Origin: Athalassotoga saccharophila
Lineage (GTDB): Bacteria; Thermotogota; Thermotogae; Mesoaciditogales; Mesoaciditogaceae
DNA length: 43,534 bases
Assembly (NCBI RefSeq): GCF_009936215.1
Contig: NZ_AP019553.1
Location: forward strand, 1 to 43,534
Direction of reading: 5' to 3'
A program made the translations under genes and the position numbers. The notes beneath the pieces are model-generated. The model searched no databases, was not told where the DNA came from, and saw only the letters and a list, made by a program, of their open reading frames with translations. Below are positions 2,877 through 30,411 of this stretch, piece by piece (within the stretch, counting starts at the first letter, position 1; each line of letters opens with the position of its first letter).

Positions 2877-3240
2877 AAAGCCCTATGTTAAATTCACATA
2901 ATTTTAAAATGTTTGTTAGTGGTTACATCATGAAAACAACACAAACACGACTAAAGTTTTTCAAACCTTTGCCGATAATTCATTTGAGGTGAGAAAATGC
3001 AGGGGTAACACTTCATTTCGATTTTCCATTTGTTATCAAATCCAAATTGTATCTTAAAGTAATAACTCGAGAAAGAGAGAGAGAGAGAGAGAGCCAGAAT
3101 TAATAGAAATAGTAGGCAATTCTGTCTTTGTTCCCCATGATGAATTTTTATACAGGATATATCTTCAGAGTGGAGAATTTTGTTATCCCACAAACAACCA
3201 CGGAATAAAAGTTATAGACAAAGTCCCATGGGCTTCTACA
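2877..3240 (+). repeat. Left copy of an inverted 5' module
   Basis: This stretch recurs in inverted orientation at about 10215-10622. Similarity is patchy over the upstream part (2877-2990), essentially perfect from about 3003 to 3140 apart from one AG unit, then fades beyond about 3230 where the two downstream coding halves diverge. It contains the presumed promoter/leader, the start of a reading frame and the AG tract. The pair lies 7 kb apart facing each other, so homologous recombination could invert the DNA between them. Confidence 0.85.
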
Positions 3241-3630
3241 AAAATATCTTCAAACTCCCACGTAAAGATTGACAATGTCCAGATATCGGACACATATCCC
3301 ATAGACTGGAAATTCCCTTACGAAAAGAGAGTCTTTTACAAAGGTCAAGACAATATGGCCTCGACCTTGTTTTGTGTTTATGGCATAAATAAGCCCGCAC
3401 TTTTTACGTTTTTGTTTTTAAACAAAAATAAAAGATTGTTACTCATGAGAGAGCGCATTATAAACCGCTCTCCTAAAGTTCAAATATTCGACAGATTCAA
3501 GTTTAATTCATCTTACCTGAAGGGTGGTGACGAATATGTGCTTGGATACGTCGTAGACGGTAGATTACTCGTGCTAAGAAGTATCGAGTACAAGGATTGG
3601 ATATATGATTTTTCTAAAAATATTTTATAA
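3002..3630 (+). pseudogene. Frame-broken or phase-variable gene of unknown family (left paralogue)
   Basis: Two open frames that meet at the AG tract. The upstream frame (from about 3002) encodes about 30 residues, GVTLHFDFPFVIKSKLYLKV and then Arg-Glu repeats. The downstream frame (open from 3058 to the stop at 3628-3630) encodes about 180 residues and has no start codon before Met at 3355, so it must depend on the upstream part. The right paralogue (9838-10497) has the same layout, nearly the same first 60 residues after the tract, and a diverged C-terminal half sharing a phenylalanine-rich LFLN/LFFN strand, FKFNSS, a GG(D/E)(E/D)YVL block and a final YDFSK. A second defect may exist at the beginning: the ATG at 2997 after GAGGTGAG reads only three codons before TAA unless the G4 run becomes G5. 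I do not recognise the family. Whether this is a contingency gene in the OFF state or a decaying pseudogene cannot be settled from one sequence. Confidence 0.6.
3074..3093 (+). repeat. (AG)10 dinucleotide tract within a reading frame
   Basis: Ten uninterrupted AG units following CTCGAGAA and ending in CC. The upstream frame reads ...KLYLKVITRERER and enters the tract, then stops at 3101-3103; the downstream coding frame (PELIEIVGNSVFVPHDEF...) is in a different phase. Nine or twelve units would join the two frames. The inverted copy has eleven units. Confidence 0.9.
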
Positions 3631-3647
3631 TCAAGGAGATGATTGGA

Positions 3648-3968
3648 ATGTATGAAATTAATGGGATTGGAAATAATAATACTCAGTATTATGGAATCAC
3701 GCCGTCTTCAGATTCGACGGTTGCGCCAAGAAATATTTCAATTTCAAATAATACAAATGGCTCTCATTTCAACACTAATGATGGACCTAGTTCATTGCCA
3801 AATACAAGTGATGTTTATCATCATGTTATCGATTCAGCTGAATCTTCAGCTGCACATGGAGATTTGATACATAATTTAGATGAACAATATACTGAATATA
3901 TGAATTCTGAAGGTCTTACACCAGCAGAGTTGCGAGCGGATCAAGACCAAGAAGAAGGTAGTGATTAA
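3648..3968 (+). CDS. Small secreted-peptide-like protein (left paralogue)
   Basis: 106-residue protein starting 17 bp after the preceding gene. The ATG at 3648 is chosen because AAGGAG lies 9 nt upstream; the ATG at 3639 is too close to it. It is Asn/Ser/Thr-rich with an acidic tail (ends DQDQEEGSD) and has no cysteine or membrane segment. The N-terminus shares a motif with the other small protein at 9494-9808: IG-x-N...Y-(G/N)-ITP-x3-ST-x2-P-x-N. After that motif the two sequences differ. A shared leader with variable cargo is typical of ribosomally made peptides, and the other cassette carries CPBP membrane proteases, so a peptide precursor is a reasonable hypothesis. No known leader class is recognised. 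Confidence 0.65.
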   Translation: MYEINGIGNNNTQYYGITPSSDSTVAPRNISISNNTNGSHFNTNDGPSSLPNTSDVYHHVIDSAESSAAHGDLIHNLDEQYTEYMNSEGLTPAELRADQDQEEGSD

Positions 3969-3983
3969 ATCTTATTTCCCAAA

Positions 3984-4016
3984 GCATCCGGTCATTTGAG
4001 AAAATGGCTGGATGTG
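3984..4016 (+). promoter_or_regulatory. Hairpin between small-peptide gene and YVTN gene
   Basis: Arms around GCATCCGGTCATTT and AAATGGCTGGATG with a GAGA loop form an imperfect hairpin just after the stop of the small protein. There is no T-run, so it is more likely an mRNA-stabilising or processing element than a terminator. The second small-protein gene is also followed by a hairpin (9455-9482). Confidence 0.55.
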
Positions 4017-4043
4017 CAAATAAAGTACAAAGGAGATGATGAT

Positions 4044-5039
4044 ATGAGAAGATATTTATTCTGGTTCATTATGATCACGATTGTAGTGCCTAATTTTGTA
4101 ATTGCTTCAACGATAGCAGATATTCCTGTAGGCAAGTGGCCGGATAGTGTTTGTATAAATCCCAAAACGGATATGATCTACGTTGCTGACTGGGGAAATA
4201 ACACTGTCAGCGTGATAAACGGTAAGAATTACTCTGAAGTAGCAGTTATAACTGTTGGCTCTTCACCTATTTCTATCGGTGTAAATCCTGTAACAAACAG
4301 AATTTATGTTGTAAATTTTAACGATAACACAATTAGCGTAATAGATGGTACAAATAATTCTGTGATTGCGACCATACCTTTGTCGATTGCCGAAAATTAT
4401 CCTGCCTGCGTTAGCATAGATTCGGGTAGGAATATTATATATGTAACTAATTCGATAGGCAATACAGTAACCGTAATAAACGGTAATGATAATTCCATTA
4501 TAACATCTGCACAGATAAGTAGCGGCCTTAGCGGAGCATATGGAGTGGCATTAAATCCAATCACAAATATAATTTACGTTACCAATTTCAAACAAAATAA
4601 AGTCAGTGTAATAAGTGGCAAAATATTACTTTCGACTTTAGGATATTCCAATTCATTAATATTATCAAATGTATTAGTTGGAGAACAACCGGGAACTATT
4701 GCTGTAAATCCATACACAAATACGATTTATGTTGCTAACTGGGGGAATGGAACTCTTAGCATAATAGATGGCACAAATAATTCTGTAATTAAAACCCTGC
4801 ACGTTGGAAATAATCCGGATGGCATAGCTGTCGATACCCGTACGGATATAATCTACGTTTCTAACTGGGGAAGTAACACAGTCAGCGTAATAAATGGAAA
4901 GAACAATTCAATTTTAAAAAATATATATGTTGGAAGAGGACCATGGGGCATATGTGTGGATCAAAATAAGAATATAGTCTATGTTGCCGTTGAAGGGCTG
5001 AATATGGTAAAGGCCATTCGCGGTTTTACGGCACCATGA
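4044..5039 (+). CDS. Secreted YVTN beta-propeller protein
   Basis: 332-residue exported protein. The ATG at 4044 (AAAGGAG 9 nt upstream) gives a clean signal peptide, MRRYLFWFIMITIVVPNFV followed by a small-residue cleavage region (IAS). The rest is a run of about seven YVTN-type blades of roughly 42 residues, each with the pattern VNPxTNxIYVxNxxxNTVSVIDG. Such 40-residue repeat propellers are surface-exposed binding or adhesion modules; no enzymatic residues are expected. It follows the small peptide gene in the same direction and is followed by a paralogue (6327-7520) that was its direct neighbour before an IS3-family insertion. Ligand unknown; binding the neighbouring peptide or a cell-surface partner is speculation. 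Confidence 0.85.
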   Translation: MRRYLFWFIMITIVVPNFVIASTIADIPVGKWPDSVCINPKTDMIYVADWGNNTVSVINGKNYSEVAVITVGSSPISIGVNPVTNRIYVVNFNDNTISVIDGTNNSVIATIPLSIAENYPACVSIDSGRNIIYVTNSIGNTVTVINGNDNSIITSAQISSGLSGAYGVALNPITNIIYVTNFKQNKVSVISGKILLSTLGYSNSLILSNVLVGEQPGTIAVNPYTNTIYVANWGNGTLSIIDGTNNSVIKTLHVGNNPDGIAVDTRTDIIYVSNWGSNTVSVINGKNNSILKNIYVGRGPWGICVDQNKNIVYVAVEGLNMVKAIRGFTAP

Positions 5040-5156
5040 AATAAGAAGAGGAGGGAACAAATGTGATATGCCCCCAAAGTTGATACAGTCAAAAGTAGAG
5101 ACCTTGTACTTATGAATGTATCATTGCAGGATCAACTGATCCTGCAAAAGTCGAAT

Positions 5157-5962
5157 TCAGTAAGACCTAAGATAGAATTTTACAGGTGTTTCGTAATCAA
5201 TCGCACTATGTGGTCTTTGATAATTATACCATTTGAACCAGTCCGTTATGGATGATTTTATCTCGTCGATAGATAAAAGGTCAAAATCAATTCCTTTGAG
5301 GCATTCGTCGCTGAATCTGGAATTGAATCCTTCGCTGAAGCCATTCTGGTAAGGCTTGCCTTTATCTATGAACTCGTGCTTGATTCTGTTGTTGGAAAGG
5401 AAGAGATTGAAATTTTTCCTGAATTCAGAGCCGTTATCGGTTCTAAAGACTCTGGGTCTTGAGAAGAGTTTTATTGAGTTTTCAAAGACCTCAAGGACTT
5501 TCTGACCGGAAATGGAGAAGTCCATGTAATAAGATATGATTCTTTTTGAGAAATCATCTATGATGACAAAGATTCTAAACTTTCTTCTTCTTACCATACG
5601 CTCGACGAAATCAGCAGACCAAACATGGCCTGGAAACAAGGGCTGAGTGAATTGAGAATAACGCTGATGGGTATGAATGCGTCTTGATACATTTAGAAGT
5701 CTTTGAAGGTCACAAGATGTATAAATACGATATACCTTCTTATGATTGATGCTTTATCTTGTTTTAAAAGAGCGAAGATACGTCTGTATCCGAAGGAAGG
5801 ATTTCGCAAAGCGATATCTTTTATCTTCTCTTCCAAAGGGTCGTAATGTTTGTTATCACCTTTGATGATACGATAAACGGTGGAACGTGACAGGTTGAAA
5901 TCTTTTGAAATACGCGTTATAGGTAAGCCGAATGAGACAAGGAAAGAGATGATCTGGTTCAA
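5157..5962 (-). pseudogene. IS3-family transposase OrfB, frameshifted
   Basis: Catalytic part of the IS3 transposase in two frames. Codons from 5962 to about 5695 give the HTH_21 region (SFGYRRIFALLKQDKASIIR), and from about 5690 to 5157 the rve integrase core with the DDE residues visible in order: D in WSADFVE, D in FRTDNGSEF and E in NGFSEGFNSRF, ending with NYQRPHSAIDYETPVKFYL. The frames are interrupted by a frameshift near 5640-5695, so no complete OrfB can be made without recoding. Confidence 0.8.
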
Positions 5963-6222
5963 AGGTTGTTTTTAGAGAATTCTCTGAGAGCATTGATTTC
6001 TAATTCTTTTTCAGCGAGCAATTTCTTGAGTTCAGCGTTTTCAGATTCGAGCAAGAGAAGACGTTTTGCATCGTTGGTAGAGAACCCTGAGAACTTTTGA
6101 ACCCATTTGTAATAGGTAGAAGAAGAGATTTGATACTTTCTGCATACTTCAGATACAGAAGTGACTTTAGCCTCTGTAAGAATCTGGATGATCTTTTCGA
6201 CTGAGAACTTTGAAACTTTCAT
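5959..6222 (-). CDS. IS3-family transposase OrfA
   Basis: 87-residue helix-turn-helix protein. Residues 1-50 carry the IS3 OrfA HTH (KFSVEKIIQILTEAKVTSVS then EVCRKYQISSSTYYKWVQKF), and residues 57-85 form the leucine-zipper-like coiled coil (LLLLESENAELKKLLAEKEL). In intact elements it is joined to OrfB by a -1 programmed frameshift; here the overlap with orfB is only 4 bp and orfB is damaged, so the element is probably not autonomous. Confidence 0.85.
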   Translation of the reverse strand: MKVSKFSVEKIIQILTEAKVTSVSEVCRKYQISSSTYYKWVQKFSGFSTNDAKRLLLLESENAELKKLLAEKELEINALREFSKNNL

Positions 6223-6326
6223 GATGCACCTCCCAAAAATATTTTACAAAAGATTCTACTTTTGAACGTATCTTTTTAGGGGAGCATCACAAATGAAAAA
6301 GACCTACTCTAAAGGAGATAATCGAT

Positions 6327-7520
6327 ATGAGGAAAATCTTTTTGATCTTTTCATGTTTCTTGATTGGAATTTTAGGATTTTCTTACACTATTTCCGGATA
6401 CGTGGACGATGCGAATCAAAATGCCATACCGGGCGTGAACATCCTCGTCAACGGTCAACCATTTACATTCTCGAACACGGACGGCTCATGGAGCGTTCAA
6501 TCGAGTGGTACAGTAAAGATAGAACCATATCTGAAATGGTGGAAATTTGACCCTCGGGAGGTAACTTTAGATAATTCTCAAACCAACGTTGATTTTGTTG
6601 GATCATACACAGGGCCAGAGTTGAGTGAAATAACGGTTGGTACATCTCCGGATGCCGGCTTTTTTGATCCCAAAAACGGGATGGTCTACGTCGCAGACAA
6701 TTTGGATAACAGCATCGTCGTGATAAATGGTCAAAAAGACACATTCGAGAACGTATTTCAAAATATCCCCGTCGGGGTAAATCCATCCGCGCTCGCGATA
6801 AATCCCGACACAGGGCTTATGTACATAGCCAACGAAAGTGCAACGGCCTTTTATTCTATAGGGATTTACAATACTGTTAAAAACAGATTCGAAGGTTCAA
6901 TTCCTTTGAATTATGCCCCAGGTGGAATAGGAATAGATCAAAAGACGGATACTTTATATGTCACCGAAAGTTACAATTCGGCTTATTATGGAAATCGTGT
7001 AGATGTTATAGACCTAAAGACAAACTCGATTATCGGCAGAATAAATGTGGGAAATGACCCATGCTGTATATTCGTTGATCAGGATACAAACAGGATCTAC
7101 GTTGTGAATAATTATGATAACACGCTTAGCGTGATCGATGGGAATAATGTAATTGCGACCATACCGGTTGGACAGGCACCGCTTAGCGTTTGCGCAGACA
7201 AAGATAAAATTTATGTCGCCAACTCTGGAGATAACACCGTCAGCGTCATAAGCGCGAATACTTACGAATTGTTAAAAACAATTCCAGTAGGAATACACCC
7301 CAGTTCGGTTGTAATAGATCCAAAAGACGACCTTATCTTTGTTGCAAACACGGACAGCAATTCGGTAAGTGTAATAGATGGATCAACGGATCGTGTTATA
7401 AGCGTTATACCCGATTCATACTCTCCTTACTCTTTGGTCATAAATTTTGCCATGAAAAAACTTTACATGATAAATCAAAAAAGCAATAATGTTACCGTTG
7501 TGGATTATTATGGAATATAG
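6327..7520 (+). CDS. Secreted YVTN beta-propeller protein with N-terminal carboxypeptidase-regulatory-like domain
   Basis: 397 residues. ATG at 6327 follows AAAGGAG by 9 nt. Residues 1-20 are a signal peptide (MRKIFLIFSCFLIGILGFSY). Residues 20-95 match the carboxypeptidase regulatory-like beta-sandwich (ISGYVDDANQNAIPGVNILV, then a NTDGSWSV turn and FDPREVTLDNSQTNVDF). From about residue 100 to the end there are seven YVTN blades (for example DTNRIYVVNNYDNTLSVIDG). It resembles the protein at 4044-5039 in its propeller but has the extra domain, typical of surface or envelope proteins that display a binding domain. Both genes are in the same direction after the left small peptide. Function beyond binding is not evident. 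Confidence 0.85.
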   Translation: MRKIFLIFSCFLIGILGFSYTISGYVDDANQNAIPGVNILVNGQPFTFSNTDGSWSVQSSGTVKIEPYLKWWKFDPREVTLDNSQTNVDFVGSYTGPELSEITVGTSPDAGFFDPKNGMVYVADNLDNSIVVINGQKDTFENVFQNIPVGVNPSALAINPDTGLMYIANESATAFYSIGIYNTVKNRFEGSIPLNYAPGGIGIDQKTDTLYVTESYNSAYYGNRVDVIDLKTNSIIGRINVGNDPCCIFVDQDTNRIYVVNNYDNTLSVIDGNNVIATIPVGQAPLSVCADKDKIYVANSGDNTVSVISANTYELLKTIPVGIHPSSVVIDPKDDLIFVANTDSNSVSVIDGSTDRVISVIPDSYSPYSLVINFAMKKLYMINQKSNNVTVVDYYGI

Positions 7521-7651
7521 ATTGTCCGCGATTTTGACTAGTGTGGCTGAGAAATTGTGTTAACTCTAATGGGTGGAAGTCTCATCGAAATAATGCCTAA
7601 CCAGCAGTTTCGTAGTTAGCCTTGGAGATATTCAGGTAACTGAATACTTTA
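7521..7651. other. Intergenic stretch after the YVTN operon
   Basis: 131 bp without a gene. It contains a weak dyad (CTAAC near 7600 paired with GTTAG near 7615). It may be part of a degraded element because the adjoining 118 bp are insertion-sequence relics. I see no clear terminator. Confidence 0.35.
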
Positions 7652-7740
7652 AGATACTCTAATAAAATCAATAGTGTACAGTTATACAGTATTTTATTTT
7701 TTTAATCAAAGTTCTTCAACTATTATTCTACACGAGTATA
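7652..7740. mobile_element. Internally deleted IS110-family relic (both ends, no transposase)
   Basis: The first about 69 bp (AGATACTCTAATAAAATCAA...) match the right end of the IS110 element at 17631-17700 and the last 20 bp (TATTATTCTACACGAGTATA) match its left end. Everything between is missing, leaving a MITE-like remnant. Confidence 0.75.
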
Positions 7741-7769
7741 TTTCTGATCAAAGATGTGCGAAATGTGGG
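7741..7769. mobile_element. IS1634-family terminal remnant
   Basis: The 29 bp ending GATGTGCGAAATGTGGG are the reverse complement of the left end of the IS1634-family element found whole at 34427-36270 (CCCACATTTCGCACATC...). It abuts the IS110 relic, so the IS110 element apparently inserted into an IS1634 copy that has since been lost. Confidence 0.75.
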
Positions 7770-7960
7770 ATATACCTTTTGAAATGCCGGCAGTAAAAAC
7801 TGAACTCCTTCCAGTAACAGACATGTAAAAGAACGAAACAAATTTAGTTTGTTTGCTATACCCTTATATCTGAGCCTCCTATTCACTTCACTATCTTACA
7901 AAATTTCATTCAATTTCGAATAAAGTCTAATGTTTTATCAATGAATTTCATCACGTAAAT
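7770..7960. other. Intergenic stretch at the point where the two operons converge
   Basis: About 190 bp with no open frame of note and no clear terminator. It separates the plus-strand YVTN genes from the minus-strand CPBP gene. Confidence 0.4.
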
Positions 7961-8650
7961 TTAATAATATATCGTTAAAACGTTGGACACCAAGTGCAAA
8001 AGCCAACCTGTATATATTGACCATCCACTGCTTTCATATGCAAATTGAAAAAATAAACCGTATATCGTTCCAAGTATTAAAGATTCAAATGGACCACTTA
8101 TTCCGTCTTTGTAAAAATGCCCGCTTCCAAATATCAAAGATGCTATTATGTAAACAATTAAAGCATTTATTTTCTTTTCTCTCAAATGTTTGAATAATCC
8201 GTACCTGAATATAAGTTCTTCTTCCAATGTCAATGGAATCCAAAAGATAAAATTTTTGAATAGATTTTCAAGAGATATTATGTGCGGTAAACGGAAAAGG
8301 TACATTGAAACGAATAACGCTAAAAATATCAAAAATATTTTGAACTGTTTCTTTTTAGGTTTAAATCTTAAAAAGCCTGCATCCTGCAAAAGATATAGGA
8401 AATCACCGGTGAATCTTATCTTTTTTTCTTTATCTGTTCTGTACCATGAAATAAGCATTGAAAGAAGAATGAATATGAACACAAGATACGTGTAATCCCT
8501 TACAAGGTCTACTGTGTTAAATACAACAAGTACATTTTCAAATGTCGAAAAATCTCTAAACCCGAATGCCGTGTAATTGGCTACTATCGAAAATATCTGT
8601 ATAAGAGCCAAAAAGAAGAAATAAAAAATCTCACGTATCGTTTTCTTCAT
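7961..8650 (-). CDS. CPBP-family intramembrane metalloprotease
   Basis: 229-residue polytopic membrane protein of the CPBP (CAAX protease and bacteriocin-processing, formerly Abi) family. All three catalytic motifs are present: EEELIFR at about residues 142-148 (the EExxxR motif), FGSGHFY at about 173-179 (FxxxH) and HLVSN at about 218-222 (HxxxN). About six hydrophobic helices. CPBP proteins cleave prenylated proteins, or in bacteria process or give immunity to peptides such as plantaricins. It is the last gene of the minus-strand operon, 9 bp after the membrane protein gene, downstream of the small peptide at 9494-9808. Processing of, or immunity to, that peptide is the inferred role. Confidence 0.85.
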   Translation of the reverse strand: MKKTIREIFYFFFLALIQIFSIVANYTAFGFRDFSTFENVLVVFNTVDLVRDYTYLVFIFILLSMLISWYRTDKEKKIRFTGDFLYLLQDAGFLRFKPKKKQFKIFLIFLALFVSMYLFRLPHIISLENLFKNFIFWIPLTLEEELIFRYGLFKHLREKKINALIVYIIASLIFGSGHFYKDGISGPFESLILGTIYGLFFQFAYESSGWSIYTGWLLHLVSNVLTIYY

Positions 8651-8659
8651 AACCTGTAC

Positions 8660-9433
8660 TTAAACAACGCCAATTTTAATCGCATAATAAAAGTTTCCCA
8701 ACGTTTGAATCATAGACATTAATATCCACGAATAATAGATCGAATTGTCAGACCAGTAGTACATAATCATCATCCATGGTGCAATAACAAAAGAATCTCT
8801 CAAAATTCCCATAATTGTTATATTTACATTGAATAGTACTTTTACTGCTAAGTATGTGATCAACAGAAAAATAGCGGAATATACATAAGCCAATTTTTGT
8901 GATTTAAGTATGTCTAAAAAATAATCAAATATTGCAAAAAATAAAACCGCTTTCCCTAAAAACATTATGAATATAAAAACGTTTATTTCTATAAAAGAAA
9001 TGTAAGGTCTAAAACTGTAAATTATTTTATTGTTTATAGATGAGAATATTTGTATCCCAACAACTAAGATTAAAATGATAGAAAAATAAAATGGCCATCT
9101 TTTTAAAAATTCTCCTCTTTTAAATCCGATGTCCCTTAGCGCTTGAAACAAATAATTCTTGTCCTTCTCCTTAAAAAAAATAGATAAATTTCCCGAGTAT
9201 TTAAGTTTAAATGTTATTACTAAAAAAAGAATCAATAAAGTGTCTAATATACCTAAAATAATTGAATATGAATAAGTCTCTAAAAAATTTTTCAAAGTCA
9301 AAGATGTTATTGTAAAAAGACTATGCTGTCTTGAATCCAAATATATAAAAATAAAACTTACCATCCAAAGTAATGCAATATCAGAAAAATTAATGCTACT
9401 TAAACTTTTATTTATTTTGTTCAAATCATCCAC
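8660..9433 (-). CDS. Polytopic membrane protein upstream of CPBP protease
   Basis: 257 residues with about seven hydrophobic segments and no soluble domain. The GTG at 9433 is chosen because AAAGGAGAG precedes it by about 8 nt. The C-terminal 140 residues resemble the truncated protein at 11473-11881 in order and hydrophobicity (both contain YxWSDxSxYY near the end: YYWSDNSIYYSW and YEWSDYSVYYVL), and each is followed immediately by a CPBP gene. The conserved pairing suggests the two proteins work together in the membrane, for example as a transporter or immunity partner. I do not recognise a named family. Confidence 0.7.
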   Translation of the reverse strand: MDDLNKINKSLSSINFSDIALLWMVSFIFIYLDSRQHSLFTITSLTLKNFLETYSYSIILGILDTLLILFLVITFKLKYSGNLSIFFKEKDKNYLFQALRDIGFKRGEFLKRWPFYFSIILILVVGIQIFSSINNKIIYSFRPYISFIEINVFIFIMFLGKAVLFFAIFDYFLDILKSQKLAYVYSAIFLLITYLAVKVLFNVNITIMGILRDSFVIAPWMMIMYYWSDNSIYYSWILMSMIQTLGNFYYAIKIGVV

Positions 9434-9454
9434 AAAAATCTCTCCTTTCGAATT

Positions 9455-9482
9455 TTCCCCTCTTCTACGTAGAAGAGGGGAA
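9455..9482 (-). promoter_or_regulatory. Perfect 28-bp palindrome between peptide and membrane-protein genes
   Basis: Arms TTCCCCTCTTCTAC and its exact complement, centred on ACGT. There is no T-run on either strand, so it is not a classical terminator. It lies inside the operon between the stop of the small peptide and the ribosome-binding site of the membrane protein, a position where hairpins stabilise an upstream short transcript and lower downstream expression. It could also be a DNA-binding site. Confidence 0.7.
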
Positions 9483-9493
9483 TGAAAAATTCT

Positions 9494-9808
9494 TTATTTA
9501 AGCAAGTCTATACCTATAGATTCTCCCATTTCAGCCAAGGCTTCAAGTCCTTCATAAAAATCAGTTAGATCATGTTCTGATGAATACTTTCCAAATCTAT
9601 ATGCTGCTTTTACAGCATCTTCAACTGGATCTGCGTGTTCTTGCACAAAGTTGTAAGTTGCTTTTGCTCCATTTTCTATCGCATTTGTTAAAGGTCCTCC
9701 TTTTTTTACCGCGTTATAATTTGGCACGGTTGTTGAATTAGCAGCAGGAGTGATGTTGTAAAGTTGATTTTGACCGATATTTTGAGTATCCGTTACTGTT
9801 AAACCCAT
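9494..9808 (-). CDS. Small secreted-peptide-like protein (right paralogue)
   Basis: 104 residues. Starts with ATG at 9808 after AAGGAGTAG. The N-terminus (IGQNQLYNITPAANSTTVPN) aligns with that of the small protein at 3648-3968. It is followed by KKGG at about residues 35-38 and then a 66-residue helical part rich in Ala/Glu with alternating polar and hydrophobic positions (AIENGAKATYNFVQEHADPV, then GLEALAEMGESIGIDLLK). The GG could be a processing site as in double-glycine leaders, but the rest of the leader does not match the class II bacteriocin pattern, so this is only suggestive. It lies between the frame-broken gene upstream and the membrane protein/CPBP pair downstream, all on the same strand. 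Confidence 0.65.
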   Translation of the reverse strand: MGLTVTDTQNIGQNQLYNITPAANSTTVPNYNAVKKGGPLTNAIENGAKATYNFVQEHADPVEDAVKAAYRFGKYSSEHDLTDFYEGLEALAEMGESIGIDLLK

Positions 9809-9837
9809 CTTTCTCTACTCCTTCCTTAAGAATTATA

Positions 9838-10497
9838 TTATTTTCTTGGTAATTTTGAAAAATCATATATACCTTCTTCAAAATGAATCTTCCTTGTGGC
9901 AAGAATTTTGCCACTTAGGATGTATTCAAGCACATAATCTTCACCTCCCATCAATTTCGAGGAGTTAAACTTGAAACTTGCATACATTTTGATATATGAT
10001 TTTCTATTTCCACTTTTTGGAATATCTTTCGTTGATACAACTTTTTCCTTTAGAAGGACTATATTCCGTTTGTTGTTGAAAAATAAGAAAATAAACACTT
10101 CCGTATCCAAAATTCCATGAATATCACAAAGCGTGGATACCATATTATCCACGCCTCTGTAAAACGTTGATTTTTCGTATGGAAATGTGAAATTGTTGTG
10201 GTAAGTGTTAGATATTTGTATGTTGTCTATGTAAGCATTTTTTGAAGATGATTTAGAAGTACTCGCCCATGGGACTTTGTTTATGACTTCTATTCCGTGG
10301 TTATTTGTTGGATAACAGAATTCTCCATTCTGAAGATGTATCCTGTATAAAAATTCATCATGAGGAACAAAGACAGAATTGCCTACTATTTCTATTAATT
10401 CTGGCTCTCTCTCTCTCTCTCTCTCTTTCTCGAGTTATTACTTTAAGATACAATTTGGATTTGATAACAAATGGAAAATCGAAATGAAGTGTTACCC
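9838..10497 (-). pseudogene. Frame-broken or phase-variable gene of unknown family (right paralogue)
   Basis: Mirror of the gene at 3002-3630. Upstream frame GVTLHFDFPF... meets an (AG)11 tract at 10405-10426 and then runs into a stop, because eleven units put it out of phase with the downstream frame. The downstream frame reads PELIEIVGNSVFVPHDEF, then HNNFTFPYEKSTFYRGVDN, and continues through MVSTLCDIHGILDTEVFIFL to the stop at 9838. Without an upstream join the only in-frame Met codons are near 10143-10152. The C-terminal half differs strongly from the left paralogue although the first 60 residues are nearly identical. Immediately downstream is the small peptide gene (29 bp gap). Confidence 0.6.
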
Positions 10498-10622
10498 CAG
10501 CATATTCTCACCTCAAATGAATTATCGGCAAAGGTTTGAAAAACTTTAGTCGTGTTTGTGTTGTTTTCGTTATACAATCATTGGCAAACATTTCAAACTT
10601 ATGTGAATTTAACACAGGGCTA
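10215..10622 (-). repeat. Right copy of the inverted 5' module
   Basis: Inverted copy of 2877-3240. Near-identical over the segment around the AG tract, including the upstream AACACAAACACGACTAAAG block and the G4 run. The candidate ATG at 2930 in the left copy is ACG here, so that ATG is not a conserved start. Confidence 0.85.
10405..10426 (-). repeat. (AG)11 dinucleotide tract (CT on the plus strand)
   Basis: Eleven uninterrupted units with the same flanks (CTCGAGAA ... CC on the minus strand) as the ten-unit tract at 3074-3093. The one-unit difference within otherwise identical flanks is direct evidence that this tract changes length. Confidence 0.9.
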
Positions 10623-10651
10623 AATGTGAAATACCTTCAAGAATTTGTGAT

Positions 10652-10766
10652 GTGTTGTTCTACTTCATCCTTACGCTGTTAAGAACTATCTTAGATCTCA
10701 ATTCCAAATCAGATACTCTTGATGCAAAGAATCTCGCTCTCGCTCTTTTTAGACTCGGAGATGATT
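10652..10766 (+). pseudogene. Internal fragment of an IS110-family transposase
   Basis: About 115 bp nearly identical to the complement of 18510-18640 within the IS110 transposase (encodes SDTLDAKNLALALFRLGDD). It has small deletions and no ends. It separates the 3' end of the second CPBP gene from the promoter side of the right 5' module. Confidence 0.8.
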
Positions 10767-10790
10767 CTGATCATGTTATCAACAAATCTG

Positions 10791-11486
10791 TCATGTGATG
10801 TTATTAATAAGGTGTAGAATCCATGGTGTATATATCGACCATCCTGTATTTTCATAAGCATATTGACAGAATAATCCAAATATGAAATTGTAAATAAAAG
10901 AAAACCATGGCGAATAGCCTGAGTTATAATAAAAGTGCCCTGATGAAAATATAGCGGCTGAAATTATGTATACCATAAATGCATTTAGACGCATTTCCCT
11001 TAAAACTTTAAAAATTGCGTATCTGTAAAATATTTCTTCTCCCAATGTCAGAGGGACCATTAATATAAAAATTTTTAGTTCATTAAAGGAAAGAGATATA
11101 AATAACAGTTTTAAGGAAGTGTACAGGAATATTATTAAAAGCGCCACTCTCTTCCATCTAACAGGTGTTAACTTAAATTTTTTGATCTTAAAGCCGATTT
11201 CATTCAGTTCATATTTGAATAAATCTTTTATTCTTATGGCAGGATAATCCGAGTGTTTGAAATATTCAAAATGGATAAAACTTACAACAATTAAACTCAG
11301 CGCAAAATAAATATAAGCCATAAAAATATCTTTTGGGGACGTTGCATCTTTTAAAATATATGTATACTTCAAAACCCCATCTCTTAGAAGTGATGGCCTT
11401 GTAAGATCTATCGCTCCTATTGCCAAAAATAATATTAAAAAATAGTAAACAATATCTCTTTTCCTGTGTCCACTATTTAATTCCAA
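10791..11486 (-). CDS. CPBP-family intramembrane metalloprotease, second copy
   Basis: 231 residues, paralogue of the protein at 7961-8650. Motifs: EEIFYR at about residues 150-155, FSSGHFYY at about 180-187 and HLINN at about 226-230. The start is a TTG at 11486, chosen because AGGAGG lies 6 nt upstream; it overlaps the end of the preceding membrane-protein gene by 14 nt, so the two are translationally coupled. The C-terminus stops a few residues earlier than the paralogue, right where degraded IS110 sequence begins, and may be slightly truncated. Active-site residues are complete. Role inferred as for the paralogue. Confidence 0.8.
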   Translation of the reverse strand: MELNSGHRKRDIVYYFLILFLAIGAIDLTRPSLLRDGVLKYTYILKDATSPKDIFMAYIYFALSLIVVSFIHFEYFKHSDYPAIRIKDLFKYELNEIGFKIKKFKLTPVRWKRVALLIIFLYTSLKLLFISLSFNELKIFILMVPLTLGEEIFYRYAIFKVLREMRLNAFMVYIISAAIFSSGHFYYNSGYSPWFSFIYNFIFGLFCQYAYENTGWSIYTPWILHLINNIT

Positions 11487-11881
11487 TTAGACCTCCTAAT
11501 CCACCCGCAATGGATATCAAAAACAATTCTATAAGGACATAATAAACAGAATAGTCAGACCATTCATATTGATAGATAAGAAAGCAAGGTATAATTGAAG
11601 CAATAATAACTGATAATAAAGCATTGTTATCATATAATGGAAAGTTAAAATATACAATTCCTAACAAACTATAAACTGCCATAAAGACAAAGGTTATCAT
11701 ATAGGAAATAGTTCTTTGTTTTGTTTTGTCAAGCAGATACTGATAAATTCCATGAGTAAAGATCGTAATGCTGGTCAGTGAGGCAAAAATTTCAAATAAA
11801 ACTATCTTGAGCATCGTTGTAGAAAAAAGTAAATTGAAATTGAATTTAGGATCTTGAAGAATGGCTCCAAACATAATTATA
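11473..11881 (-). pseudogene. Membrane protein paired with CPBP, N-terminus removed by IS256
   Basis: About 135 residues of a polytopic membrane protein equivalent to the C-terminal half of the protein at 8660-9433 (shares YEWSDYSVYY). The frame runs straight into the left end of IS256 copy A; the in-frame ATG at 11913 belongs to the insertion sequence (MEVYTNNLILP...) and has no ribosome-binding site, so I treat the gene as truncated. The upstream part is not found elsewhere in the window. Confidence 0.75.
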
Positions 11882-13215
11882 GGGAGTATAAGATTATTTG
11901 TGTAAACCTCCATTTTGAGTAAAATAAACTCAAAGGAGGAGAATCATGGAAAAGAAAAGACTAATGTCCAAAGATGAGATCAGAAAGTTTATCAAAGACA
12001 ATGATATCAAAGATATTGCAGGTATCGAAGAATCTCTAAAAAGGATGTTTTCATCGGTTATTGAAGAAATGCTTGAGGCTGAATTAGAGGACCAACTTGG
12101 ATATACCAAATACGATTACAAGTCTAAGATGACGGATAATTCAAGAAATGGCAAATCGAAGAAAACGGTTATGTCGAAATACGGTGAAACTGAAATAGAA
12201 GTTCCACGAGACAGGAATTCCGATTTTGAACCTCAGGTTGTTAAGAAACGCCAAAGAGATATTTCTGGTATAGAAGACAGGATAATATCCATGTATGCTA
12301 ATGGGATGACATTCTCCGAAATTGGGAATCAGATAGAGGATATTTACGGAGCGGAACTTTCAAATGAAACCTTATCGAGGATAACGGATAAGATAATACC
12401 GCTCATGGAAGAATGGAGAAACAGGCGGCTTGAAGAAGTATACGCCATAGTTTATCTTGACGGGATAAGGTATAATGTGCGGGAAAATGAACAGGTAATA
12501 AACAAGACGGTTTATTTTGCGGTAGGAATAGATTTAGGTGGACAAAAAGATGTTTTAGGTATGTGGATAGCAGAAACAGAAACATCCAAGTATTGGGCCA
12601 AGGTTTTAAGTGATTTACGAAATCGTGGTGTTAAAGACATTCTCATAATGACAACAGATGGACTTAGTGGGATGAAAGAAGCGGTTGAAGCGATTTATCC
12701 TGAAACTGAATTGCAGGGATGCGTCGTTCATGTCATAAGGAATGGAATGAAATACGTTTCGTACAAGGATTTAAAAGAGTTCTCCAAGGATACGAAGAGT
12801 ATATATCAAGCGCCGACAGAAGAATCGGCACGAAAGGGATTAAACGCTTTGAAAGAAAAGTGGTCTGAGAAATATCCTTTAGCTGTGAATGTATGGGAAA
12901 AGAGTTTTGACAGGATATCCACGATGTATCAATTTACTCCTGAGATAAGGAAACTCATCTATACTACAAATCCGATAGAAAGTTTTAACATGCAATTGAG
13001 GAGGAAAACAAAGAACAGAGATGTTTTACCTAACGATACGGCTATATTCAAATTGCTTTATTTGGCAGTAGTTGAGATAAAGAAAAAATGGGTGATGAAG
13101 GTAAAAGACTGGAATCAAATTTTACAGCAATTAAAGGTACATTTTGGGGAAAGAGTGTCTAAATACTTATGAATACTGACAAAAATGGAGTTTACACAAA
13201 ACTATTGACAGACCC
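11882..13215 (+). mobile_element. IS256-family element, copy A (full length)
   Basis: 1334 bp, bounded by GGG...CCC. The imperfect terminal repeats share TTTGTGTAAAC and CTCCATTTT blocks. The 8-bp flanks differ (TAATTATA left, TTACTCCA right), so this copy no longer sits at its original insertion site: a deletion or recombination between copies has replaced at least one flank. Confidence 0.95.
11946..13172 (+). CDS. IS256-family (mutator-type) transposase, copy A
   Basis: 408-residue DDE transposase; the protein is the same in every full copy here. Catalytic residues are in VYLDGIR (D about 171), MTTDGLSGM (D about 237) and TNPIESFNMQLRRKTKNR (E about 344), with the family's conserved C/H block GCVVHVIRN. 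The start has GGAGGA 6 nt upstream. A dyad TTTGAGT/ACTCAAA (11914-11934) immediately precedes the ribosome-binding site and could limit translation of read-through transcripts. Length is normal for IS256, and the gene should be functional. Confidence 0.95.
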   Translation: MEKKRLMSKDEIRKFIKDNDIKDIAGIEESLKRMFSSVIEEMLEAELEDQLGYTKYDYKSKMTDNSRNGKSKKTVMSKYGETEIEVPRDRNSDFEPQVVKKRQRDISGIEDRIISMYANGMTFSEIGNQIEDIYGAELSNETLSRITDKIIPLMEEWRNRRLEEVYAIVYLDGIRYNVRENEQVINKTVYFAVGIDLGGQKDVLGMWIAETETSKYWAKVLSDLRNRGVKDILIMTTDGLSGMKEAVEAIYPETELQGCVVHVIRNGMKYVSYKDLKEFSKDTKSIYQAPTEESARKGLNALKEKWSEKYPLAVNVWEKSFDRISTMYQFTPEIRKLIYTTNPIESFNMQLRRKTKNRDVLPNDTAIFKLLYLAVVEIKKKWVMKVKDWNQILQQLKVHFGERVSKYL

Positions 13216-15473: not shown

Positions 15474-16807
15474 GGGAGTATAAGATTATTTGTGTAAACC
15501 TCCATTTTGAGTAAAATAAACTCAAAGGAGGAGAATCATGGAAAAGAAAAGACTAATGTCCAAAGATGAGATCAGAAAGTTTATCAAAGACAATGATATC
15601 AAAGATATTGCAGGTATCGAAGAATCTCTAAAAAGGATGTTTTCATCGGTTATTGAAGAAATGCTTGAGGCTGAATTAGAGGACCAACTTGGATATACCA
15701 AATACGATTACAAGTCTAAGATGACGGATAATTCAAGAAATGGCAAATCGAAGAAAACGGTTATGTCGAAATACGGTGAAACTGAAATAGAAGTTCCACG
15801 AGACAGGAATTCCGATTTTGAACCTCAGGTTGTTAAGAAACGCCAAAGAGATATTTCTGGTATAGAAGACAGGATAATATCCATGTATGCTAATGGGATG
15901 ACATTCTCCGAAATTGGGAATCAGATAGAGGATATTTACGGAGCGGAACTTTCAAATGAAACCTTATCGAGGATAACGGATAAGATAATACCGCTCATGG
16001 AAGAATGGAGAAACAGGCGGCTTGAAGAAGTATACGCCATAGTTTATCTTGACGGGATAAGGTATAATGTGCGGGAAAATGAACAGGTAATAAACAAGAC
16101 GGTTTATTTTGCGGTAGGAATAGATTTAGGTGGACAAAAAGATGTTTTAGGTATGTGGATAGCAGAAACAGAAACATCCAAGTATTGGGCCAAGGTTTTA
16201 AGTGATTTACGAAATCGTGGTGTTAAAGACATTCTCATAATGACAACAGATGGACTTAGTGGGATGAAAGAAGCGGTTGAAGCGATTTATCCTGAAACTG
16301 AATTGCAGGGATGCGTCGTTCATGTCATAAGGAATGGAATGAAATACGTTTCGTACAAGGATTTAAAAGAGTTCTCCAAGGATACGAAGAGTATATATCA
16401 AGCGCCGACAGAAGAATCGGCACGAAAGGGATTAAACGCTTTGAAAGAAAAGTGGTCTGAGAAATATCCTTTAGCTGTGAATGTATGGGAAAAGAGTTTT
16501 GACAGGATATCCACGATGTATCAATTTACTCCTGAGATAAGGAAACTCATCTATACTACAAATCCGATAGAAAGTTTTAACATGCAATTGAGGAGGAAAA
16601 CAAAGAACAGAGATGTTTTACCTAACGATACGGCTATATTCAAATTGCTTTATTTGGCAGTAGTTGAGATAAAGAAAAAATGGGTGATGAAGGTAAAAGA
16701 CTGGAATCAAATTTTACAGCAATTAAAGGTACATTTTGGGGAAAGAGTGTCTAAATACTTATGAATACTGACAAAAATGGAGTTTACACAAAACTATTGA
16801 CAGACCC
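15474..16807 (+). mobile_element. IS256-family element, copy B (full length)
   Basis: 1334 bp, GGG...CCC ends, flanked on both sides by the 8-bp duplication CGGATTTA (15466-15473 and 16808-16815). An undisturbed insertion, in the same orientation as copy A 2.3 kb away. Confidence 0.95.
15538..16764 (+). CDS. IS256-family transposase, copy B
   Basis: 408 residues with the same sequence as copy A, including the DDE residues (YLDGIR, TTDGLSG, NPIESFN) and the GGAGGA start site. The lack of divergence implies recent spread. Confidence 0.95.
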   Translation: MEKKRLMSKDEIRKFIKDNDIKDIAGIEESLKRMFSSVIEEMLEAELEDQLGYTKYDYKSKMTDNSRNGKSKKTVMSKYGETEIEVPRDRNSDFEPQVVKKRQRDISGIEDRIISMYANGMTFSEIGNQIEDIYGAELSNETLSRITDKIIPLMEEWRNRRLEEVYAIVYLDGIRYNVRENEQVINKTVYFAVGIDLGGQKDVLGMWIAETETSKYWAKVLSDLRNRGVKDILIMTTDGLSGMKEAVEAIYPETELQGCVVHVIRNGMKYVSYKDLKEFSKDTKSIYQAPTEESARKGLNALKEKWSEKYPLAVNVWEKSFDRISTMYQFTPEIRKLIYTTNPIESFNMQLRRKTKNRDVLPNDTAIFKLLYLAVVEIKKKWVMKVKDWNQILQQLKVHFGERVSKYL

Positions 16808-24301: not shown

Positions 24302-25635
24302 GGGTCTGTCAATAGTTTTGTGTAAACTCCATTTTTGTCAGTATTCATAAGTATTTAGACACTCTTTCCCCAAAATGTACCTTTAATTGCTGTAAAATTT
24401 GATTCCAGTCTTTTACCTTCATCACCCATTTTTTCTTTATCTCAACTACTGCCAAATAAAGCAATTTGAATATAGCCGTATCGTTAGGTAAAACATCTCT
24501 GTTCTTTGTTTTCCTCCTCAATTGCATGTTAAAACTTTCTATCGGATTTGTAGTATAGATGAGTTTCCTTATCTCAGGAGTAAATTGATACATCGTGGAT
24601 ATCCTGTCAAAACTCTTTTCCCATACATTCACAGCTAAAGGATATTTCTCAGACCACTTTTCTTTCAAAGCGTTTAATCCCTTTCGTGCCGATTCTTCTG
24701 TCGGCGCTTGATATATACTCTTCGTATCCTTGGAGAACTCTTTTAAATCCTTGTACGAAACGTATTTCATTCCATTCCTTATGACATGAACGACGCATCC
24801 CTGCAATTCAGTTTCAGGATAAATCGCTTCAACCGCTTCTTTCATCCCACTAAGTCCATCTGTTGTCATTATGAGAATGTCTTTAACACCACGATTTCGT
24901 AAATCACTTAAAACCTTGGCCCAATACTTGGATGTTTCTGTTTCTGCTATCCACATACCTAAAACATCTTTTTGTCCACCTAAATCTATTCCTACCGCAA
25001 AATAAACCGTCTTGTTTATTACCTGTTCATTTTCCCGCACATTATACCTTATCCCGTCAAGATAAACTATGGCGTATACTTCTTCAAGCCGCCTGTTTCT
25101 CCATTCTTCCATGAGCGGTATTATCTTATCCGTTATCCTCGATAAGGTTTCATTTGAAAGTTCCGCTCCGTAAATATCCTCTATCTGATTCCCAATTTCG
25201 GAGAATGTCATCCCATTAGCATACATGGATATTATCCTGTCTTCTATACCAGAAATATCTCTTTGGCGTTTCTTAACAACCTGAGGTTCAAAATCGGAAT
25301 TCCTGTCTCGTGGAACTTCTATTTCAGTTTCACCGTATTTCGACATAACCGTTTTCTTCGATTTGCCATTTCTTGAATTATCCGTCATCTTAGACTTGTA
25401 ATCGTATTTGGTATATCCAAGTTGGTCCTCTAATTCAGCCTCAAGCATTTCTTCAATAACCGATGAAAACATCCTTTTTAGAGATTCTTCGATACCTGCA
25501 ATATCTTTGATATCATTGTCTTTGATAAACTTTCTGATCTCATCTTTGGACATTAGTCTTTTCTTTTCCATGATTCTCCTCCTTTGAGTTTATTTTACTC
25601 AAAATGGAGGTTTACACAAATAATCTTATACTCCC
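24302..25635 (-). mobile_element. IS256-family element, copy C (full length)
   Basis: 1334 bp on the minus strand, flanked by the 8-bp duplication CAAAATTA (24294-24301 and 25636-25643). Inserted into the ISLre2 transposase gene. Confidence 0.95.
24345..25571 (-). CDS. IS256-family transposase, copy C
   Basis: 408 residues, same protein as copies A, B and E, with all catalytic residues. Its own GGAGGA start site and leader dyad are intact. Confidence 0.95.
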   Translation of the reverse strand: MEKKRLMSKDEIRKFIKDNDIKDIAGIEESLKRMFSSVIEEMLEAELEDQLGYTKYDYKSKMTDNSRNGKSKKTVMSKYGETEIEVPRDRNSDFEPQVVKKRQRDISGIEDRIISMYANGMTFSEIGNQIEDIYGAELSNETLSRITDKIIPLMEEWRNRRLEEVYAIVYLDGIRYNVRENEQVINKTVYFAVGIDLGGQKDVLGMWIAETETSKYWAKVLSDLRNRGVKDILIMTTDGLSGMKEAVEAIYPETELQGCVVHVIRNGMKYVSYKDLKEFSKDTKSIYQAPTEESARKGLNALKEKWSEKYPLAVNVWEKSFDRISTMYQFTPEIRKLIYTTNPIESFNMQLRRKTKNRDVLPNDTAIFKLLYLAVVEIKKKWVMKVKDWNQILQQLKVHFGERVSKYL

Positions 25636-25700
25636 CAAAATTAAGACTCTTCTAAATCCACATTTTACATAATCGTTACACCCCATTACTTTATACACAC

Positions 25701-26771
25701 GTTCTTTGTTTTCCTCCTCAATTGCATGTTAAAACTTTCTATCGGATTTGTAGTATAGATGAGTTTCCTTATCTCAGGAGTAAATTGATACATCGTGGAT
25801 ATCCTGTCAAAACTCTTTTCCCATACATTCACAGCTAAAGGATATTTCTCAGACCACTTTTCTTTCAAAGCGTTTAATCCCTTTCGTGCCGATTCTTCTG
25901 TCGGCGCTTGATATATACTCTTCGTATCCTTGGAGAACTCTTTTAAATCCTTGTACGAAACGTATTTCATTCCATTCCTTATGACATGAACGACGCATCC
26001 CTGCAATTCAGTTTCAGGATAAATCGCTTCAACCGCTTCTTTCATCCCACTAAGTCCATCTGTTGTCATTATGAGAATGTCTTTAACACCACGATTTCGT
26101 AAATCACTTAAAACCTTGGCCCAATACTTGGATGTTTCTGTTTCTGCTATCCACATACCTAAAACATCTTTTTGTCCACCTAAATCTATTCCTACCGCAA
26201 AATAAACCGTCTTGTTTATTACCTGTTCATTTTCCCGCACATTATACCTTATCCCGTCAAGATAAACTATGGCGTATACTTCTTCAAGCCGCCTGTTTCT
26301 CCATTCTTCCATGAGCGGTATTATCTTATCCGTTATCCTCGATAAGGTTTCATTTGAAAGTTCCGCTCCGTAAATATCCTCTATCTGATTCCCAATTTCG
26401 GAGAATGTCATCCCATTAGCATACATGGATATTATCCTGTCTTCTATACCAGAAATATCTCTTTGGCGTTTCTTAACAACCTGAGGTTCAAAATCGGAAT
26501 TCCTGTCTCGTGGAACTTCTATTTCAGTTTCACCGTATTTCGACATAACCGTTTTCTTCGATTTGCCATTTCTTGAATTATCCGTCATCTTAGACTTGTA
26601 ATCGTATTTGGTATATCCAAGTTGGTCCTCTAATTCAGCCTCAAGCATTTCTTCAATAACCGATGAAAACATCCTTTTTAGAGATTCTTCGATACCTGCA
26701 ATATCTTTGATATCATTGTCTTTGATAAACTTTCTGATCTCATCTTTGGACATTAGTCTTTTCTTTTCCAT
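25701..26771 (-). pseudogene. IS256-family transposase, copy D, truncated
   Basis: The first about 357 codons of the transposase, then four foreign residues (VCIK) from the ISLre2 end and a stop. It still includes all three catalytic acidic residues (the E in NPIESFN is about residue 344) but lacks the last 50 residues, and the element has only one end. Confidence 0.9.
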
Positions 26772-29667: not shown

Positions 29668-30411
29668 TAAAAATGGAACTATACTTACAAAATATAATGG
29701 AATCAATACAATTTGAAAATTTACCTTCAGAGTGGACTAACTTTGACTTTGTCAAGTTTTCAGATAAAAAGAAACTATTTGATTACCAACAGGATGCATT
29801 GAAAAACGTATTGAAAGCTTTGTATAAGTATTACAAAGATTTCAATGCAGATAAAAGACTATTCTTTCAATTTTATAAAAACAATGGTTTCTCTGAAAAT
29901 TTAGATTTTGTGATTAATAATAATAAGATCCTAAGTATCTTTGAAGAATTTAACAATGATTATGGAATTACAGGAAATACAATTGCTTTTTATAACTTCA
30001 TAAACCGTATGAGTTTCTGGATGGCTACAGGTAGCGGTAAAACTATTGTCATCGTTAAATTAATTGAATTGCTTATCAACTTAATGAAAGAGAATCAAAT
30101 ACCCAAAAAAGATATACTCTTTCTTACATACAGAGAGGATCTTATAGATCAGTTTAAAAGTCACATAGAAGAATTTAATAAGTCTATAGGCAATTTGAAT
30201 ATAAATCTAAATGATCTAAAGCAATATGACAGCATAAAAAGAGAAAGTAGAATGAACATTAACAATGGAGTTGATATTTTTTATTACCGAAGTGATTTAA
30301 TATCAGACGAACAGAAAGACAAAATCATAGATTTTAGAAATTACGATAATAATGGTAATTGGTATATTTTACTTGATGAAGCACATAAAGGGGACAGAGA
30401 AGACAGTAAAA

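What the first reader, a model, noticed from the sequence alone, without database searches (positions are those of the whole stretch)
2877..11913. Two convergent peptide cassettes with CPBP proteases, membrane partners and YVTN propellers: candidate new peptide system
Seen: on both arms a shared 5' module leads into a diverged gene, then a 104-106-residue protein with a common N-terminal motif, then a hairpin, then downstream genes (two secreted YVTN proteins on the left; a polytopic protein plus CPBP protease on the right). A second membrane protein/CPBP pair lies upstream of the right arm. Known: CPBP members process peptides or give immunity to them. Inference: the small proteins are substrates or secreted peptides, the membrane/CPBP pair handles processing, export or self-protection, and the YVTN proteins are surface partners.
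Basis: partly seen in the sequence, partly recalled or inferred. Interest (0 to 1): 0.82.

Follow-up and report, generated by a model that had tools for sequence, protein, structure and literature searches.

The report
Switchable small-protein cassettes with matched partners
On a plasmid of a heat-loving bacterium from a deep branch of Thermotogota lie two copies of a modular gene cassette, in which a gene with a stuttering AG repeat (a probable on/off switch) precedes a small protein and its matching membrane or secreted partners; it looks like a self-protected small-protein weapon or signal, but no function has been tested.

Summary
The window is a whole 43,534-bp contig, the size of plasmid pATS2 of Athalassotoga saccharophila NAS-01. 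Its two arms are members of a cassette family found only in Mesoaciditogaceae (5 of 103 Thermotogota genomes).

The "shared 5' module" is the 5' part of an orphan gene (A). It is interrupted by an (AG)n tract that differs between copies (10, 11, 13, 10, 5, 10 units). Five of the six copies would read through A at 6, 9 or 12 units; all six are frame-shifted as sequenced. A relative in G012 has no tract and is fully open. In the 10 family genomes, (AG)7 runs occur only in gene A, and codons beyond the tract are under purifying selection. This is the pattern of a phase-variable gene; switching itself was not seen.

A's 3' end carries TATAAT 7-24 nt before the small gene (B) in 11/11 cassettes, against 2/205 control ORFs, and survives where A is truncated. 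A strong hairpin follows most B genes. Next come either an active CPBP plus, in several copies, a catalytically degenerate CPBP paralogue, or secreted beta-propellers. CPBP-linked B proteins are more hydrophobic.

Best reading: bacteriocin-like secreted small proteins with cognate self-protection. The structural claim is strong; the function is inferred.

The parts
2879..3233 (+). Shared 5' module, left copy: upstream region plus 5' part of gene A
   Evidence: Inverted repeat I1/I2 with 10265-10621, 93-94%; identity falls off on both sides
10265..10621 (-). Shared 5' module, right copy
2997..3008 (+). Mini-ORF ATG-CAG-GGG-TAA behind a Shine-Dalgarno-like GAGGTGA; the same ATG-NNG-GGG-TAA stands at the start of A in 7/7 copies
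   Evidence: 7 hits in 250 kb of strands scanned, all at gene A
10492..10503 (-). Mini-ORF ATG-CTG-GGG-TAA, right copy
3005..3630 (+). Gene A, left copy (about 207 codons if the tract were in frame; frame-shifted as sequenced)
   Evidence: homologue open without a tract in G012
9838..10495 (-). Gene A, right copy (about 217 codons if in frame; frame-shifted as sequenced)
3074..3093 (+). (AG)10 tract inside gene A; out of frame, 9 or 12 units would open A
10405..10426 (-). (AG)11 tract inside gene A; out of frame, 12 or 9 units would open A
3626..3631 (+). TATAAT (-10-like) at the 3' end of A, 16 nt before B1
   Evidence: 11/11 cassettes versus 2/205 control ORFs
9832..9837 (-). TATAAT (-10-like) at the 3' end of A, 23 nt before B2
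3648..3968 (+). B1, 106-aa acidic small protein, no signal peptide, no Cys
   Evidence: chromosomal paralogue B4 86% identical
9494..9808 (-). B2, 104-aa small protein with helical C-terminal half (low-confidence model)
3984..4015 (+). Hairpin after B1
   Evidence: z -5.35 for 3966-4045
9455..9482 (-). Hairpin after B2 (12-bp stem)
   Evidence: z -3.81 for 9430-9497
4044..5039 (+). Secreted YVTN beta-propeller Y1
   Evidence: TIGR02276 6e-43; N-terminal signal sequence MRRYLFWFIMITIVVPNFVIAS
6327..7520 (+). Secreted YVTN beta-propeller Y2 with N-terminal CarboxypepD_reg-like domain
5072..6282 (.). IS3-type insertion (28-nt inverted repeats at its ends) between Y1 and Y2; orfB broken
   Evidence: (I6), ORFs 5157-5639, 5693-5962, 5959-6222; family assignment by reading, not searched
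7961..8650 (-). CPBP intramembrane protease of the right cassette, motifs EExxxR, FxxxH and H intact
   Evidence: PF02517 6.7e-12; alignment
8660..9433 (-). Pseudo-CPBP partner (CPBP fold, catalytic motifs lost)
   Evidence: hhalign A4 vs A2 probability 98.2%, E 3.9e-14
10791..11486 (-). Second CPBP, remnant of a further cassette
   Evidence: PF02517 1.1e-14
11473..11880 (-). Second pseudo-CPBP, 5' end lost to an IS256-type insertion
   Evidence: (repeat D1 starts at 11880)

Best explanation
The two arms are modular cassettes of one family, confined to Mesoaciditogaceae. Each has (i) gene A, about 205-230 codons, with an (AG)n repeat that by slipped-strand mispairing would put the rest of A in or out of frame; (ii) a small gene B, strongly marked for expression (its own TATAAT inside A's 3' end, a good ribosome site, usually a hairpin after its stop that would set B mRNA apart from the genes behind it); and (iii) partner genes matched to B's type: an active CPBP protease (with a degenerate CPBP partner in several copies) for membrane-active B, or Sec-exported beta-propellers for acidic soluble B. 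The most likely working: B is a secreted antagonistic (bacteriocin-like) or signalling small protein, the partner genes protect the producer or receive B, and A is an accessory factor fitted to B through its C-terminal part. Subpopulations would switch A on and off at random. Cassettes diversify by recombination in the conserved 5' half of A. Shown by sequence: cassette architecture, tract variation, selection on A beyond the tract, mosaic A genes, conserved TATAAT, hairpins, pseudo-CPBP. Inferred: switching, promoter activity, secretion, antagonism, immunity, role of A.
For: Tract lengths differ between copies, and five of six copies read through A only at unit numbers divisible by 3. The 254-aa relative in G012 is open without a tract. 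(AG)7 occurs in the 10 family genomes (~19 Mb) only inside gene A. Codons between tract and C-terminal part have dN/dS 0.05-0.34 and no ATG/GTG/TTG start of their own, so they must be read through the tract in some cells. Mosaic: in G016 the two A copies have dS 0.14 before but 1.35 after the junction. TATAAT before B: 11/11 versus 2/205. Hairpins: 7 of 9 cassettes z about -3 to -6. CPBP-linked B proteins (n=4) are all more hydrophobic than YVTN-linked ones (n=5), and three have glycine-rich GxxxG-type C-termini. Partner is a dead CPBP paralogue. Pseudo-CPBP matches occur only in genomes that also carry A. B is conserved as protein (dN/dS 0.10).
Against: All six tract-bearing copies are out of frame, and four further copies have only a remnant of A, which also fits decay. 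The start codon of A is unresolved: the well-placed ATG runs into TAA after three codons in 7/7 copies. The pre-tract segment shows no clear purifying selection (dN/dS 0.1-0.9). B has no leader of a known export route, and C39 exporters are absent. B2 is less clearly membrane-active than B8-B10. If B has its own promoter, A's switch need not control B. A has no known relative and its model failed (pLDDT 35).
Confidence: 0.5

Rival explanations
1. Gene A is a decaying gene whose AG tract is an accident; only B and its partners are functional, and the A 3' end is kept merely because it holds B's promoter.
For: All six tracts out of frame; A reduced to its last 30-55 codons or internally deleted in four cassettes that keep B and partners; TATAAT conserved in all; one copy (L031) carries a further frameshift.
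Against: Purifying selection beyond the tract and in the C-terminal part in shifted copies; tracts in four genomes at the same place and nowhere else; an intact tract-free A in G012.
Confidence: 0.27
2. One reading: B is a substrate or pheromone that the CPBP/membrane pair processes or exports, with YVTN proteins as surface partners.
For: Fixed gene order B then CPBP pair or propeller; some CPBP proteases act in peptide maturation (general knowledge).
Against: About half of the cassettes have no CPBP next to B; one of the pair has lost the catalytic residues; no shared cleavage site in B; no exporter or modifying enzyme in the cassettes.
Confidence: 0.15
3. Cell-surface variation system: B and propellers are toga or surface components, and A's tract provides antigenic-type variation towards phages.
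For: Propellers carry signal peptides; phase variation often affects surface features (general knowledge).
Against: A and B have no signal peptides; the CPBP branch has no surface component; A's tract does not obviously control the propellers because B has its own TATAAT.
Confidence: 0.08

Closest known systems
Class II bacteriocin loci with CPBP (Abi) self-immunity genes, e.g. the streptococcal blp3/angicin locus with a CAAX/CPBP gene (PMC8692603, which cites Kjos et al. 2010)
   Same: Small protein gene followed by a membrane CPBP protein; some B proteins have GxxxG-rich C-termini
   Different: No double-glycine leader or C39 exporter, mostly acidic B proteins, paired active and dead CPBP, beta-propellers in the same slot in half the cassettes, and a switchable gene in front
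AG-repeat phase-variable mod genes, e.g. MmyCI of Mycoplasma mycoides (PMC3498834)
   Same: (AG)n in the coding frame; the unit number decides between a truncated and a full-length product
   Different: A is not a methyltransferase, has no known relatives, and heads small-protein cassettes
blpA frameshift repeat in pneumococcal bacteriocin loci (PMC6422914)
   Same: Short-repeat frameshift switching off one function of a peptide locus while the rest stays
   Different: There the exporter is hit by a 4-bp repeat; here an orphan gene with a long dinucleotide tract
Polymorphic toxin cassettes (PMC3482391)
   Same: Conserved 5' part with variable 3' part and matched partners, diversified by recombination
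   Different: The variable unit is a separate small gene, and A is not an evident toxin carrier

Membership tests
Simple-sequence-repeat phase-variable gene | Short repeat within a reading frame | tested here: met
   (AG)10 and (AG)11 in gene A; homologue open without tract
Simple-sequence-repeat phase-variable gene | Repeat number differs between copies or strains and decides the frame | tested here: met
   10, 11, 13, 10, 5, 10 units; frame open at 6, 9, 12 in five of six copies
Simple-sequence-repeat phase-variable gene | Frame on both sides of the tract under selection | tested here: inconclusive
   Beyond the tract dN/dS 0.05-0.34; before it 0.1-0.9 on 22-39 codons
Simple-sequence-repeat phase-variable gene | Switching seen within a population | not testable with these tools
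CPBP intramembrane protease (PF02517) | Domain score above cut-off and EExxxR / FxxxH / H motifs | tested here: met
   for 7961-8650 and 10791-11486
CPBP intramembrane protease (PF02517) | Catalytic motifs in the partner 8660-9433 | tested here: not met
   Fold related (98.2%), motifs absent in the alignment
Class II bacteriocin with CPBP immunity | CPBP gene next to a small protein gene | tested here: met
   Right arm and L029, L032
Class II bacteriocin with CPBP immunity | Double-glycine leader with C39 exporter | tested here: not met
   PF03412 0 of 10 family genomes
Class II bacteriocin with CPBP immunity | Killing and immunity activity | not testable with these tools
   Needs expression experiments
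RiPP precursor with radical SAM maturase | Maturase with the cassette | tested here: not met
   rSAM near one chromosomal cassette is not co-conserved with A
YVTN beta-propeller (TIGR02276) | Repeat score above cut-off | tested here: met
   6.2e-43 and 2.7e-40

The most novel reading that the evidence does not exclude
A new kind of modular antagonism or signalling system in the deepest branch of Thermotogota: a phase-variable orphan adaptor (A), possibly started through a built-in stop or frameshift site (ATG-NNG-GGG-TAA), whose C-terminal part is fitted to a separately transcribed small protein (B), guarded by an active/dead CPBP pair or by secreted propellers used as immunity proteins.
Probability: 0.3. 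Interest if true: 0.8.

Novelty: new variant of a known kind. Interest (0 to 1): 0.6.

Why it matters
A literature search in the held library found no report of repeat-driven phase variation in Thermotogota or of such a switch in front of bacteriocin-like cassettes (titles and abstracts of open-access papers only). If real, a thermophile uses stochastic switching, a strategy known mainly from host-associated bacteria, and the cassettes offer a new set of small-protein/CPBP and small-protein/propeller pairs. A. saccharophila is in culture, so tract length and B expression can be tested directly.

Tried and rejected
AlphaFold of A (7 sequences) failed, pLDDT 35; B2 alone gave pLDDT 48 with three C-terminal helices and no usable fold, so no fold search was run. 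A and B have no convincing match in Pfam, NCBIfam, PHROGs, PADLOC or PDB sequences. B2 and A are absent from viral contigs. The right arm has no DNA match in plasmids. RiPP reading rejected: rSAM not co-conserved. C39 exporters absent. YVTN genes as markers: the other YVTN genes examined sit among unrelated genes, many beside pgk/tpiA-like genes, or beside an rSAM or exporter fragment, without a recognisable A, so YVTN alone does not mark the system. Polarity of A on B as the main switch was weakened by B's own TATAAT.
Full report
What the window is. The window is the whole of contig C3 (43,534 bp) of a three-contig, 2.04-Mb genome. The published complete genome of Athalassotoga saccharophila NAS-01 has a 43,534-bp plasmid pATS2 and a 1,957,762-bp chromosome (PMC7163026). 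Both sizes match, so I take the window to be pATS2.

Check of the observation. The two arms begin with a 94% identical module in inverted orientation. Each then has a diverged ORF, a small ORF of 104-106 codons, a hairpin and downstream genes. B1 and B2 share their N-terminal 25-30 residues (shuffle p 0.0005) but not the rest (p 0.88).

The 5' module is part of a gene with an AG tract. Relatives of the diverged ORF (gene A) occur in G012, G013, G015 and G016 of the same family and as remnants on the own chromosome. No other of 103 phylum genomes has a convincing copy, and a scan of 84,980 species genomes found only Mesoaciditoga and other Thermotogota MAG contigs. In G012 (L030) A is one open frame that runs from inside the 'module' to the end of the diverged ORF. 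In the other copies the same place holds a perfect (AG)n run of 10 (left), 11 (right), 13, 10, 5 and 10 units. Changing only the unit number in silico, five of the six copies read through A at 6, 9 or 12 units and at no other tested number from 4 to 13; the sixth (L031) has a second frameshift. All six are shifted as sequenced, and for random lengths this has probability 0.088. (AG)7 occurs in the ten genomes of the family only in gene A, and about a dozen times in the other 93 phylum genomes.

Selection on A. Between copies, the 87-88 codons after the tract have dN/dS 0.05-0.34 and the C-terminal part 0.10-0.29, although these copies are out of frame. No ATG, GTG or TTG stands in that stretch, so the protein must be made through the tract in some cells. 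The 22-39 codons before the tract give no clear answer, 0.1-0.9. In G016 the two neighbouring A genes have dS 0.14 after the tract but 1.35 in the C-terminal part, a sign of recombination in the 5' half with the C-terminal part staying with its own B. How A starts is open: a well-placed ATG is followed in 7/7 copies by NNG-GGG-TAA, and A's frame is -1 to it. A slippage on GGGG before the stop would join them, but I have no test of this.

The small gene B. In 11 of 11 cassettes TATAAT stands 7-24 nt before B, at the very end of A; in control ORFs 2 of 205 have it. It is kept where A's stop lies elsewhere (right arm, L031) and where A is otherwise lost (B3, B4, B9, B10). T. maritima has a class of 11-17-nt leaders (PMC3636130), which fits. 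After B, seven of nine cassettes tested have a hairpin with z about -3 to -6, of mostly unrelated sequence. B6 and B7 from different genera are 66% identical with dN/dS 0.10, so B is a protein gene. B proteins lack Cys and a signal peptide.

The partner genes. Cassettes carry either an active CPBP, in several copies with a degenerate CPBP paralogue (hhalign 98.2%), or secreted YVTN or PQQ-type propellers. Profile matches to the degenerate CPBP lie only in G000, G012, G015 and G016, all of which carry A. B proteins next to CPBP (B2, B8, B9, B10) are all more hydrophobic than those next to propellers (B1, B3, B4, B6, B7; 1 in 126 by rank), and three have glycine-rich GxxxG-type ends. B8 has an in-frame stop, so that copy may be dead. 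The second pair in the window (10791-11880) is a cassette remnant cut by an IS.

How it most likely works. I favour an antagonistic or signalling small protein with cognate self-protection, and a phase-variable accessory factor A. CPBP proteins as bacteriocin self-immunity are known (PMC8692603 and its citation of Kjos et al. 2010); propellers as immunity are my inference. A's role is the weakest link: it is matched to B by its C-terminal part and by position, but B appears to have its own promoter, so the switch may decide B's maturation, export or target rather than its transcription.

Compared with known systems. The AG tract behaves on paper like that of the MmyCI mod gene of Mycoplasma mycoides, where 12 units stop translation and 10 units open the frame (PMC3498834). 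A repeat frameshift that silences one function of a bacteriocin locus is known for pneumococcal blpA (PMC6422914). Neither combines the switch with an orphan gene, a separately marked small gene and alternative partner modules.

Limits. No reads, expression data or structures were available. Cassette counts are small and copies are related, so p-values are only guides. Organism identity rests on contig sizes. Several relatives are MAG contigs that end inside the cassette.

Noticed in passing
L033:10352-11983 (-), L034:231-365 (+), L034:508-600 (+), L034:770-2116 (+): Chromosomal locus with a large regulator carrying an HTH domain (TPR-like by eye), a divergent 44-aa secreted peptide (MKRIFILLIICLLLFMSMLSFADDNGGGSQEGNPNPPVAASQIP), a 30-aa peptide ending in STCIFDMCANGG, a radical SAM/SPASM maturase and an MFS gene: looks like an RRNPP-type quorum-sensing/RiPP system in Thermotogota.
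   Followed up: partly
L104:5269-7226 and L107:2074-3901: Two more regulator/secreted-peptide divergent pairs in relatives, peptides with a DDxGxTNxTN-like stretch.
   Followed up: no
window 2997-3008 (+), 10492-10503 (-): ATG-NNG-GGG-TAA mini-ORF behind a ribosome site at the start of every gene A copy (7/7), frame -1 to A; possible recoding site or leader.
   Followed up: partly
window 11946-13172, 15538-16764, 24345-25571, 25686-26771, 30455-31681, 34076-37152: Four complete and one shortened near-identical IS256-type transposase genes plus one split by another transposase gene (34449-36095); one copy splits a restriction res-like gene (29655-30425 / 31714-33948) downstream of a methyltransferase gene (27190-29667).
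   Followed up: no
G024:C1:1161070, G028:C11:94731, G028:C16:72723, G029:C12: Other (AG)7+ tracts in Thermotogota genomes outside the family, not examined for phase-variable genes.
   Followed up: no
L047:7384-7562 and L048 (reverse strand, near its start): Gene A remnants fused directly to the leader of a YVTN gene; in L048 the break lies at the position of the AG tract and B is gone, as if lost by deletion.
   Followed up: partly
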